DNA of 38,962 bases from assembly GCA_002401345.1 (NCBI GenBank), contig NVSU01000011.1, positions 54 through 39,015 on the forward strand, given 5' to 3'. The notes below the pieces were generated by a model. The model searched no databases and was not told the origin of the DNA. It saw nothing but the letters and a program-made list of their open reading frames with translations. Origin of the DNA: Candidatus Wolfebacteria bacterium (lineage in GTDB: Bacteria; Patescibacteriota; Minisyncoccia; Phycocordibacterales; NVSU01). The position numbers and the translations under genes are program-made. Of the stretch, positions 1,209-15,525 are shown in pieces (positions within the stretch are counted from its first letter, which is position 1; every line of letters begins with the position of its first letter).

Positions 1209-1850
1209 ATGAGAAAAGTTCCATTTGTACAAGGCGAATTTTATCACATCTACAACAGAGGGGTTGATAAAAGAAATATTTTTCAAGATCAAAAAGATCT
1301 CAAGCGTTTCATTCAAAGTATGAAGGAATTTAATACAGTAGAACCAATAGGGAGTATTTATGCTAATTCTTTCGACAAAGACCAACTTAGACGTCCGACG
1401 TCTAAGTTGGTTAATTTTATATGTTATTGCTTAAATCCAAATCATTTTCACTTTATTTTAGAGCAACTAGAAGATAATGGAATAAGTGAATTTATGAAAC
1501 GTCTTGGTGGTTATACAAAATATTTTAATGAAAGATATAAAAGAAGTGGCACCTTATTTCAAGGAAAATTTAAATCGAAACACATTAATGATGATAATTA
1601 TTTACTACATTTGAGTGCATATATAAATTTGAATCACAAAGTTCACAAATATAATGATGATTTGTTAAAGTTGTCACATTCTAGTTGGGAAGAATATATT
1701 GGAGAGAGTTCAAATTTTTGTAGCAAAAATATTGTTATAGGGCAATTTGATGATAAAGAAGAGTACAGAAAATTTGCATTATCAGCATTAGAAAATATCT
1801 TGAATAAGAAGAAGGCAGACAAGGAACTAGATAAGTTATTGTTGGAATAA
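1209..1850 (+). CDS. REP-associated tyrosine transposase (RAYT, Y1/HUH, IS200-like)
   Basis: YHIYNRGVDKRNIF, HUH motif NPNHFHFILEQ, GGYTKYFNERYKRSGTLFQGKFKS; flanked by palindromes. Confidence 0.93.
   Translation: MRKVPFVQGEFYHIYNRGVDKRNIFQDQKDLKRFIQSMKEFNTVEPIGSIYANSFDKDQLRRPTSKLVNFICYCLNPNHFHFILEQLEDNGISEFMKRLGGYTKYFNERYKRSGTLFQGKFKSKHINDDNYLLHLSAYINLNHKVHKYNDDLLKLSHSSWEEYIGESSNFCSKNIVIGQFDDKEEYRKFALSALENILNKKKADKELDKLLLE
1381..1411. repeat. REP-like palindrome 2, inside the transposase CDS
   Basis: ACCAACTTAGACGTC-C-GACGTCTAAGTTGGT, 15-bp arms; encodes QLRRPTSKLV. Confidence 0.9.
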
Positions 1851-5705: not shown

Positions 5706-6479
5706 TATTGTATATACTTTTCCTTACGTATGAATAAATTTAAACAACTAGGACGGACAAAATAGAAAGTGTTTCGTTTTTTATTTTGTCCGCCTTAGTC
5801 GGCGGATTTTTGCTTATATCAATCTGATATAACATACGAATGATCATTAAAAACAACATCCTGTTCCGACCATACTTTTTTGTCTTTTTGTCTAGTAGGT
5901 TGGAAACAGATCATCTCCTTTTACAGCGGTGTAAAAGGAGATATATAAATTATATGTAAGTGATTTTTAAGTTTCCTAATAGGAAACAAGAGCATATGGT
6001 GGATGCCTTGACTCTAAAAGGCGATGAAGGACGTGGCTTGGCTGCGATAAGCTTCGGGGAGGTGCCTAGCGACCTTTGATCCGGAGATCTCCGAATGGGG
6101 AAACCTCATCCACTGAAAGTGGATGACTTCGATTTATTTCGAAGAGCGAACCCAGGGAAGTGAAACATCTCAGTACCTGGAGGAACAGAAAACAATGTCA
6201 CCTAGTGACGACATTCCCTAAGTAGCGGCGAGCGAAAAGGGAGGAGCCCAAACCCATCACTTCGGTGGTGGGGGTTGTAAGGTAACAACGTAGTTTTACT
6301 AGAGAAGTCAAAAAATACAATGTTAGTTGAAGTTGTTGGAAAGCAACGCCAAAGGAGGTGATAGCCCTGTAAGCGAAAACATTGAATCTTCTTTGTTGTT
6401 ATTCTTGAGTATCTCAAGACACGAATAGCTTGAGAGAATCTGCCAGCACTAACTGGTAAGGCTAAATACTTTTAGAGAT

Positions 6480-6518
<39 letters not shown>

Positions 6519-6596
6519 GTCCGATTAGGACAGTGAAATAGACCTGAAACCATATGCTTACAAGTAGTGGGAGTGGGCATCACATTGCATGTGATG

Positions 6597-6680
6597 CCGA
6601 ATTATGAATAAAGAATTATGAATTATGGGGGAAATTTGCTTCGCAAATTTCCCATTCCTGATTCATATTTCATGATTCGG
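6597..6680. repeat. IVS-like hairpin insert in 23S (helix 25 region)
   Basis: CCGAATTATGAATAAAGAATTATGAATTATGGGGGAAATTTGCTTCGCAAATTTCCC...CATGATTCGG; lies where E. coli has GCACGCUUAGGCGUGUGAC. Confidence 0.85.
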
Positions 6681-7898: not shown

Positions 7899-7989
7899 GC
7901 GGAATAATGAAGCATGAAGCAAGAATAATGAAATTAAAATTTGCGAAGCAAATTTTTTATAATTCATAATTCGTTATTCATAATTCTGC
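7899..7989. repeat. IVS-like hairpin insert in 23S (helix 63 region), inverted homologue of 6597-6680
   Basis: Reverse complement GAATTATGAATAACGAATTATGAATTATAAAAAATTTGCTTCGCAAATTT nearly matches 6599-6650. Confidence 0.85.
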
Positions 7990-8193
7990 AACGAACGAGA
8001 GTGAGATGCTTGGGCCGCAGCGAAAGTATCCCTGGCGACTGTTTATCAAAAACACAGCTCCCTGCGAACTAGTAATAGGATGTATAGGGGGTGACGCCTG
8101 ACCAATGCCAGAAGGTTAAATACGGGGGGTGCGTATCTCAGTATTCATAATTATTGTGAACACTGAGATGCGTGCTGATCTGTATAAGCCCTG

Positions 8194-9367: not shown

Positions 9368-9691
9368 CGTGAGACAGGTTGGTCTCCTATCTGCTGTGGG
9401 CGTTGATTCTTGAGAAGATCTGCTTCTAGTACGAGAGGACCGAAGTGGACTGACCTCTGGTGTATCGGCTGTCGTGCCAACGGCATTGCCGAGTAGCTAT
9501 GTTGGGAATGGATAACCTCTGAAAGCATCTAAGAGGGAAGCCAACTTCAAGATAAGGAATCGTTGAGAATCCTAGGAGATGACTAGGTTGATAGGCTCTA
9601 AGTGTACGCACAGTAATGTGTTCAGCTGAGGAGTACTAATTATTCGATTCCTATTAGGAAACTTGAAAATCACATATAATTAATGATCAAA

Positions 9692-11765: not shown

Positions 11766-11779
11766 AATAATCACATGAA

Positions 11780-11899
11780 TCCCGTTAGAGATCTAAACGT
11801 TATGTATTGGACTTTGTGGAGAATCTACAGATATAATAAAAACAATTAGAATTTATTACGAATTATACGGAAATCTTTGACTTCCTATCTCTAACGGGA
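11780..11899. mobile_element. 120-bp TIR element A (TCCCGTTAGAGAT ends), direct repeat TGAA
   Basis: TCCCGTTAGAGAT...ATCTCTAACGGGA; TGAA at 11776-11779 and 11900-11903; near-identical inverted copy at 27178-27297. Confidence 0.85.
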
Positions 11900-11903
11900 T
11901 GAA

Positions 11904-12023
11904 TCCCGTACGAAATGAATAAGTTATAGATTTGGTCTTGATGTGGTATAAATAATTTACTTTTATTATGAAGAATTATACAAATAATTTGCGGAAATCT
12001 TTGATTTCCTATCTCTAACGGGA
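11904..12023. mobile_element. 120-bp TIR element B, direct repeat TGAA, decayed or chimeric left end
   Basis: TCCCGTACGAAATGAA...GCGGAAATCTTTGATTTCCTATCTCTAACGGGA; flanked by TGAA at 11900-11903 and 12024-12027. Confidence 0.75.
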
Positions 12024-12027
12024 TGAA

Positions 12028-12156
12028 TCCCGTAGTAGAAAATGACATTAGAGAAACATCATATTTTTTATGTATAATATAATTCAGCATTATAATAAAT
12101 TAATAAATCATGACATATATGCTCCACAAGGAGCGATGTCATTTTTCACTACGGGA
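12028..12156. mobile_element. 129-bp second-family element C (TCCCGTAGTAGAAAATGACAT ends)
   Basis: TCCCGTAGTAGAAAATGACAT...ATGTCATTTTTCACTACGGGA flanked by TGAA; last base is the A of the rodA ATG. Confidence 0.8.
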
Positions 12157-14839: not shown

Positions 14840-14848
14840 TTGCATGAA

Positions 14849-14968
14849 TCCCGTTAGAGATCACAATGTTATATATACGGGAGGAAGTGTAATAGAAAAA
14901 ATAATTAACAATAATTACGATAGGCATGAGTTACACGGAAATGTAATCATTTCCTATCTCTAACGGGA
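14849..14968. mobile_element. 120-bp TIR element D, direct repeat TGAA
   Basis: TCCCGTTAGAGAT...ATCTCTAACGGGA; TGAA at 14845-14848 and 14969-14972; last base is the A of the downstream ATG. Confidence 0.85.
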
Positions 14969-15525
14969 TGAATATAACACTTTTTTATTTTTTAAATGAT
15001 CTTGCATTTAGATCTCCAGTACTTGATGCCCTCATAATATTTTTTGCGACACACTTCGGAACACTATTGTTTGCAGGAGTAATTTTATTTTTAGTTGTCG
15101 AAAAATATCCAAAAGAACATAATCCACTTAGAATAATTAGATTGCGATTAAATAAATTCGCTGTTATTTTTGTGTCTGTAGTAGGGTCATGGGGGGTCGC
15201 AGGATTACTCAAGGAAATCTTGACGGTACCTCGACCATTTTTGTTTCTTGAAAATGTGAAGTTGCTTTTCGAGCATGGTGGCTTTGATTCATTTCCATCA
15301 GGACACGCTACGTTTTTTGCAGCATTGGCCATGGCACTTTACTATTATAATAAGAAATTAGGACTCATTTTTGGTGTGTCGGCACTCATCATTGGAGTAT
15401 CACGAGTGATTGCTGGTGTACATTTTCCAGTTGATATTATCGCAGGTTTTTTCATTGGAATCGTTGGAGCGTGGATAGTGCATCTTATTGCCGTTAAAGT
15501 TGCAAAACTCGAACAAACGCTGTAG
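14968..15525 (+). CDS. PAP2 family phosphatase (undecaprenyl-diphosphatase-like)
   Basis: KEILTVPRPF, FDSFPSGHATFFAALA, GVSRVIAGVHFPVDIIAGFFIG. Confidence 0.9.
   Translation: MNITLFYFLNDLAFRSPVLDALIIFFATHFGTLLFAGVILFLVVEKYPKEHNPLRIIRLRLNKFAVIFVSVVGSWGVAGLLKEILTVPRPFLFLENVKLLFEHGGFDSFPSGHATFFAALAMALYYYNKKLGLIFGVSALIIGVSRVIAGVHFPVDIIAGFFIGIVGAWIVHLIAVKVAKLEQTL

What the first reader, a model, noticed from the sequence alone, without database searches (positions are those of the whole stretch)
14844..14972. Element D splits a start codon and creates a 39-codon leader ORF coupled to the PAP2 gene
The left flank is A-TGAA and the right junction A(element)-TGAA, so ATG exists on both sides. From the left ATG the element reads MNPVRDHNVIYTGGSVIEKIINNNYDRHELHGNVIISYL*, stopping at TAACGGGATG, with only 4 nt between the stop and the PAP2 ATG. 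This geometry suits translational coupling. A start codon (ATGAA) may be the preferred target, making insertion benign.
Basis: partly seen in the sequence, partly recalled or inferred. Interest (0 to 1): 0.75.

Follow-up and report, generated by a model that had tools for sequence, protein, structure and literature searches.

The report
Start-codon-targeting GIY-YIG mobile element
The 118-base insert in front of this gene is a stripped-down copy of a tiny (about 276-base) one-gene mobile element, apparently undescribed, that lands exactly on the start codons of bacterial genes and duplicates the start codon, so that the invaded gene keeps an intact beginning.

Summary
The ORF from the left ATG is 39 codons and stops (TAA 14961-14963) four bases before the PAP2 ATG.

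It is a short, non-autonomous copy of an element found at 83 places in this order/phylum. Full-length relatives (67 delimited, median 276 bp) share the ends and target and carry one gene, a GIY-YIG nuclease of the small UPF0213 kind. Most sit on start codons: 52 of 67 autonomous and 60 of 83 TIR-paired copies put an ATG opening a long ORF at the right junction, against 26% expected for non-coding ATGAA sites. Host genes include ruvC, rsmA, truB, rplI, rpsL, murG, gatC and gapdh. Four empty sites in congeners show a single ATG, and half of the aligned PAP2 orthologues without the element start at the same codon. The nuclease's stop codon is usually completed by the target (A|TGA).

So start-codon targeting and benign insertion are supported. 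Leader-ORF coupling is possible here but not a family property (leader open to the end in 18 of 66). That the nuclease drives movement is inferred. No paper in the held library describes such an element.

The parts
14844..14848 (+). left copy of the target duplication ATGAA (original PAP2 start codon, 4 nt after the folD stop)
   Evidence: sequence; PAP2 orthologues without the element start at or near this codon
14849..14967 (+). element D: non-autonomous copy, T + 118 bp CCCG...CGGG with perfect 12-bp (14 with flanking AT) terminal inverted repeats
14850..14861 (+). left terminal inverted repeat CCCGTTAGAGAT
14956..14967 (+). right terminal inverted repeat ATCTCTAACGGG, abutting the gene
14937..14954 (+). 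sub-terminal hairpin GGAAATG-TAAT-CATTTCC next to the right end; same position but different sequence in other copies
14844..14963 (+). 39-codon leader ORF MNPVRDHNVIYTGG...ISYL*, probably the remnant of the nuclease reading frame
   Evidence: no Pfam match
14968..14972 (+). right copy of the target duplication ATGAA; ATG = PAP2 start
14968..15525 (+). invaded gene: PAP2 phosphatase
   Evidence: PF01569 E=4e-22
11775..11898 (+). copy E1 of the same element (ATGAA T CCCG...CGGG, 118 bp); first of a tandem array of three at the ftsW/rodA start
11899..12022 (+). copy E2: hybrid, left end of the GTACGAAAT type (as the autonomous element L282 of this genome), right end of the GTTAGAGAT type
12023..12155 (+). 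copy E3: related element with GTAGT-type ends, followed directly by the ftsW/rodA ATG (12156)
   Evidence: autonomous relative at a GTPase (LepA-like) start in L309; PF01098
27173..27301 (-). copy E4, flanked by ATGTA/ATGTA; not at a start codon, right end about 22 bp from a small minus-strand ORF

Best explanation
Element D is a non-autonomous (MITE-like) copy of a compact transposable element whose full-length form is about 276 bp: short terminal inverted repeats (TCCCGTTAGAGAT...) around a single gene for a UPF0213-type GIY-YIG nuclease. The element inserts into (A)TGNN at gene start codons in one orientation and duplicates 4-5 bp including the ATG. The left copy stays behind the gene's own promoter or upstream gene and is usually in frame as a start for the nuclease. 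The right copy regenerates the host gene's start and also completes the nuclease's stop (A|TGA). Shown here: the family, its boundaries, target duplications, empty sites, start-codon bias, orientation bias and the shared ends of coding and non-coding copies. Inferred: that the nuclease recognises the paired ends and nicks start-codon DNA to move the element, and that copies without the gene, such as D, are moved in trans. Start-codon choice may reflect open DNA at transcription starts, because target genes have a -10 box 4-11 nt before the ATG more often than other genes.
For: Copies: CCCGTTAGAGAT 38 times in the genome, reversed control 0; TIR in 22/98 same-order genomes. Duplications vary with the target and match on both sides (TGAA, TGAG, TGGA, TGTA, CGAA). 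Empty sites with one ATG in congeners for ftsW-murG, rplF-rplR and two other loci. Full-length copies encode GIY-YIG (PF01541 6e-18); 67 delimited copies, 272-315 bp, median 276, junction ATG opening a long ORF in 52, stop TGA formed at the junction in 48. Nuclease sequence tracks TIR type on a tree built without the TIR-coded residues: 6 changes against 13.8 shuffled, 0 of 200 as low. Orientation: 40 copies against 2 with the same end facing the gene; 0 of 71 autonomous copies reversed. True starts confirmed by curated families. -10 box in 49/87 targets against 114/337 controls, p = 2e-4.
Against: No movement has been observed. This genome (92% complete) has no nuclease-coding copy with the exact GTTAGAGAT ends; its nearest one (L282) has GTACGAAAT ends. 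26 of 67 autonomous copies lack a perfect duplication and 14 of 67 lack an ATG at the junction. GIY-YIG enzymes are hydrolytic nucleases not known to join DNA ends, so the joining step would need host repair. Part of the start-codon bias could be survival of harmless insertions, and the null model used a simple ORF-based annotation.
Confidence: 0.78

Rival explanations
1. Ordinary MITE: both short and nuclease-coding copies are moved by an unseen DDE transposase, and the GIY-YIG gene is a passenger.
For: TIR plus 4-5 bp target duplication is typical of DDE elements; no nuclease copy with the exact ends in this genome.
Against: No TIR pair enclosing more than about 400 bp was found around the single-TIR hits of the fetched loci; the only recognisable gene inside any copy is the nuclease; nuclease sequence co-varies with TIR type.
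Confidence: 0.15
2. Single-strand (HUH/Y1, IS200/REP-like) element inserted 3' of ATGAA, its apparent duplication being part of its right end; moved by a Y1 enzyme such as ORF 1209-1850.
For: Hairpin-rich ends, oriented insertion, and one Y1_Tnp ORF in the genome.
Against: Flank pairs change together in near-identical copies (TGAA vs TGAG between elements 97% alike), which needs target duplication; the Y1 ORF has its own, different palindrome CACTTAGACGTC.
Confidence: 0.04
3. The leader is a selected regulatory unit: the element is kept because its leader ORF couples translation to the PAP2 gene.
For: TAA-N4-ATG geometry; termination-reinitiation at overlapping gene pairs is documented (PMC6728339); the leader frame is open to the end in 18/66 copies against 0 and 2 for the other frames.
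Against: 48 of 66 copies have internal stops; element lengths fall in all three frames; the frame excess follows from descent from the nuclease ORF.
Confidence: 0.12
4. No start-codon targeting: insertions are random and only those that keep a start codon survive in a gene-dense genome.
For: Most of the genome is coding; insertion at ATG with duplication is harmless.
Against: Non-coding ATGAA sites that are not starts are about three times as many as starts (183 vs 66) yet hold few copies; same orientation throughout; -10 box excess.
Confidence: 0.25

Closest known systems
MITEs (non-autonomous TIR elements)
   Same: Short, TIR-bounded, target duplication, many copies, partner with longer coding copies.
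   Different: The partner gene is a GIY-YIG nuclease, not a transposase; the target is the start codon in fixed orientation.
UPF0213/YhbQ-type single-domain GIY-YIG proteins (PDB 1ZG2, 1YWL)
   Same: Same domain and similar size (A1 profile, E=1e-9 and 2e-5).
   Different: Here the gene is bounded by TIRs and mobile; those entries are named hypothetical proteins, with no mobile context known to me.
GIY-YIG homing endonuclease genes (I-TevI type, free-standing Seg type)
   Same: Mobile DNA carrying a GIY-YIG nuclease.
   Different: Homing copies into one cognate allele; here dozens of unrelated genes are hit, with TIRs and short duplications. Homing enzymes recognise the empty target only, not their own mobile DNA (PMC1564403).
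Insertion sequences in CPR rRNA genes that encode GIY-YIG or no ORF (PMC11270868)
   Same: Same bacteria, GIY-YIG-coding or short (<200 bp) inserts unlike group I or II introns; the GIY-YIG ones judged not to spread by homing.
   Different: That paper reports rRNA insertions and mentions no inverted repeats or start codons; identity with this family was not tested.
HEARO / IscB elements
   Same: Compact nuclease-coding elements; from memory they insert at ATGA or GTGA.
   Different: IscB is RuvC/HNH and RNA-guided; no Rfam hit here. The ATGA recollection was not confirmed in the library.
IS200/IS605 and REP/RAYT elements
   Same: Small hairpin-ended elements with oriented insertion next to a short motif.
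   Different: Y1 HUH enzymes make no target duplication; this family duplicates its target and has no Y1 gene.
Rickettsia palindromic elements
   Same: About 100-150 bp palindromic repeats tolerated at protein-coding genes (from memory).
   Different: Those sit in frame inside ORFs; these sit on the start codon and have a coding partner.

Membership tests
MITE | terminal inverted repeats | tested here: met
MITE | target-site duplication | tested here: met
   matching 4-5 bp flanks that vary with the target and four empty sites
MITE | no transposase gene; shares ends with an autonomous element | tested here: met
   same ends as GIY-YIG-coding copies; the partner is a nuclease, not a transposase
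Classical IS with DDE transposase | DDE transposase inside TIR-bounded copies | tested here: not met
   no larger TIR pairs; the only recognisable gene inside is PF01541
IS200/IS605 or REP-RAYT | Y1 HUH transposase linked to the ends | tested here: not met
   single Y1 ORF has a different palindrome
IS200/IS605 or REP-RAYT | no target duplication | tested here: not met
   duplications present
GIY-YIG nuclease family | PF01541 domain | tested here: met
   6.2e-18 and 7.6e-16
GIY-YIG nuclease family | conserved Tyr, Arg, His and Glu of the domain | tested here: met
   Y14, Y25, R35, H39, E71 invariant in 10 sequences; G27 lost in one
GIY-YIG homing endonuclease | insertion into one cognate conserved site | tested here: not met
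   dozens of unrelated genes
GIY-YIG homing endonuclease | lies in a self-splicing intron or intein | tested here: inconclusive
   no Rfam match for the non-coding copies; coding copies were not scanned
HEARO/IscB | omega-RNA and RuvC/HNH protein | tested here: not met
   no Rfam match; the protein is GIY-YIG
Translational leader/coupling element | conserved leader ORF ending at the downstream start | tested here: not met
   open to the end in 18/66 copies
GIY-YIG transposon (proposed) | nuclease catalyses movement | not testable with these tools
   needs a mobilisation assay

The most novel reading that the evidence does not exclude
A new kind of autonomous transposable element of about 276 bp, smaller than the classical insertion sequences known to me: a GIY-YIG nuclease uses its own inverted repeats to insert itself and its gene-less derivatives at the transcription start/start codon of leaderless genes. 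It borrows the host gene's start codon and part of its stop codon from the duplicated ATGA, so the host gene survives. Such elements would explain many of the small GIY-YIG genes of Patescibacteria.
Probability: 0.45. Interest if true: 0.95.

Novelty: categorically new. Interest (0 to 1): 0.85.

Why it matters
If right, it adds a nuclease class not known to run TIR elements to the list of transposition enzymes. It gives a simple solution to living in streamlined genomes (land on start codons, duplicate them), and offers an explanation for the many small GIY-YIG genes of Patescibacteria. It also warns annotators that MNPVRD... N-termini and leader ORFs in these genomes can be transposon ends, and it makes start-codon or transcription-start targeting by a DNA element testable.

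Tried and rejected
Y1/HUH origin (rejected: flanks co-vary, Y1 ORF has another palindrome). Large autonomous transposon (no TIR partner within reach). Viral carriers: the viral-contig scan with the 14-mer gave scattered single matches that look like chance hits. Known RNA element: none in Rfam. Leader ORF as conserved coupling device: not conserved. Shine-Dalgarno loss as the reason for tolerance: SD is rare in control genes too (11/87 vs 58/337, p = 0.33). Local alignment with the element left in gave a wrong pairing for L135, because G184 holds a related element elsewhere in that locus; repeated with joined flanks. The L096 empty site is gapped and not counted. One row of A1 was typed with M for its first residue I (L065); this does not affect the results used.

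Full report
OBSERVATION. The window is part of a draft genome of 897 kb in 24 contigs; the best matching named records are mostly Parcubacteria/Paceibacterota. Element D is exactly as described: ATGAA 14844-14848, T, CCCGTTAGAGAT 14850-14861 to ATCTCTAACGGG 14956-14967, ATGAA 14968-14972. The left-ATG ORF has 39 codons, TAA at 14961-14963 and four bases to the PAP2 ATG. folD ends four bases before the left ATG, so the native geometry was also TAA-N4-ATG. The copy number is far above chance.

FAMILY. A DNA search of the genome finds about 20 copies, the best 97% identical. 19 paired copies were delimited, 118-121 bp. The same ends occur in 22 of 98 genomes of the order and more sparsely in the rest of the phylum (16 of 379), with a reversed-pattern control near zero. 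After fetching loci, 83 TIR-paired copies of 48-389 bp were compiled; a few of these are probably chance or decayed pairs. Flanks are duplicated and change from copy to copy on both sides together (TGAA, TGAG, TGGA, TGTA, CGAA), even between near-identical elements; some copies show a 4-bp ATGA/ATGG duplication. This is true target duplication and argues against a single-strand HUH mechanism.

THE CODING FORM. Copies of 269-280 bp encode, between the same ends, a GIY-YIG nuclease (PF01541 6e-18; nearest solved sequences UPF0213 1ZG2 and 1YWL). Its N-terminus MNPVRD and C-terminus SLTG are the translated inverted repeats. A genome-collection scan found 476 relatives; the best 80 were examined. 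A stricter pass over these and earlier loci delimited 67 elements, 272-315 bp, median 276. In 53 the junction codon is ATG, in 52 of them opening a long ORF. In 48 the nuclease stop is a TGA that starts one base past the CGGG end, that is, the TG of the host ATG plus its next A. In 35 of 46 copies with a left ATG that codon is in frame with the nuclease; 52 also have an internal ATG. 41 of 67 keep a perfect 4-5 nt duplication. Wider relatives have other TIR types (ACCCTGTTAAATA, GTACGAAAT, GTAGT, a perfect 20-mer). On a tree from the non-TIR part of the nuclease, TIR type changes 6 times against 13.8 in shuffles, 0 of 200 as low, as expected if the nuclease recognises its ends; 79 columns leave many forks unresolved.

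TARGET. 60 of 83 TIR-paired copies have a junction ATG opening at least 60 codons; among ATGAA sites outside coding sequence in the same loci only 66 of 249 (26%) are starts. 18 of 19 downstream proteins with a curated family match align from within their first ten residues, the exception being uS10 with a 16-residue lead (RuvC, RsmA, TruB, bL9, PcrA, ExoIII, RecR, MurG twice, uS12, MurA, bL31, GatC, Adk-like, transaldolase-type, GAPDH, uL18, peptide deformylase). Four clean empty sites in congeners show the flanks continuous with one ATG. Of 16 aligned PAP2 orthologues without the element, 8 have an ATG at exactly the same codon, and most others start within a few codons. The same element end faces the gene in 40 copies against 2, and no autonomous copy is reversed (0 of 71). 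Genes of these genomes rarely have a Shine-Dalgarno motif (17%), but a TANNNT box 4-11 nt before the ATG is common (34%), consistent with leaderless mRNAs; targets show it in 56% (p = 2e-4). Insertion at a transcription start is therefore plausible, but some targets (rplF-rplR, ftsW-murG) lie inside operons.

STRUCTURE. Strand D folds with a 14-bp terminal stem that puts the right AUG at its base, z = -4.15. 19 of 41 short copies carry a sub-terminal hairpin at the same place (0.35 expected after shuffling) with at least six different sequences, so shape rather than sequence is kept there.

HOW IT MOST LIKELY WORKS. Shown: a mobile family with a nuclease-only coding form, start-codon preference, duplication that preserves the gene, and short derivatives sharing the ends. 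Inferred: the nuclease binds the paired ends, perhaps as a hairpin, nicks opened DNA at (A)TGNN and lets host repair complete the joint; short copies such as D move in trans. In this genome the cognate coding copy is missing from the 92% assembly; L282 (GTACGAAAT type) and the hybrid E2 at 11899-12022 suggest exchange of ends between types.

LEADER. The leader frame is open to the end in 18 of 66 copies, against 0 and 2 in the other frames. The excess follows from the translated ends and from descent from the nuclease ORF. Most copies have internal stops, so coupling is not how the family is tolerated in general. At D itself it remains possible, and termination-reinitiation is known for overlapping gene pairs (PMC6728339).

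KNOWN OR NOT. Nine searches of the open-access library found no description. The nearest is the report that GIY-YIG-coding inserts in CPR rRNA genes are unlike group I or II introns and do not look like homing, and that short ORF-less inserts also occur there (PMC11270868). Most subscription papers and all preprints were out of reach, so the novelty claim is provisional.

Noticed in passing
window 1209-1850: Y1_Tnp (IS200-like) ORF with palindromes of the CACTTAGACGTCGGACGTCTAAGTG type on both sides and a related copy inside the ORF: looks like a REP/RAYT unit, unrelated to element D.
   Followed up: partly
window 11775-12155: Three elements in tandem (E1, E2 hybrid, E3) sharing ATGAA separators, all upstream of the ftsW/rodA start: repeated insertion into the regenerated start codon.
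   Followed up: yes
L287 (G000:C4:16026-16199): A GIY-YIG ORF between CCCCGCCCCCTA inverted repeats, not at a start codon: a further TIR type in the same genome.
   Followed up: no
L304: GIY-YIG ORF inside a perfect 20-bp inverted repeat CCCGCCCAACTTTTTAGAGT.
   Followed up: no
L145 and L136: Orthologous copies in two species of one genus (G170, G184) at a non-ATG site ATTAA: an old shared insertion.
   Followed up: partly
window 5949-5985 / 9648-9684 and 6595-6678 / 7909-7990: Two nested long-distance inverted repeats around minus-strand ORFs; possibly another mobile unit.
   Followed up: no
L356, L367, L381, L382, L389, L397: Close nuclease relatives in records named Planctomycetes, Omnitrophota, Desulfobacteraceae, Endomicrobia, TA06 and Syntrophaceae: horizontal spread or mis-binned contigs.
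   Followed up: no
control genes of fetched loci: Shine-Dalgarno motifs are rare (17%) while a -10-like box peaks 6-9 nt before the ATG: these bacteria may use leaderless mRNAs widely.
   Followed up: partly
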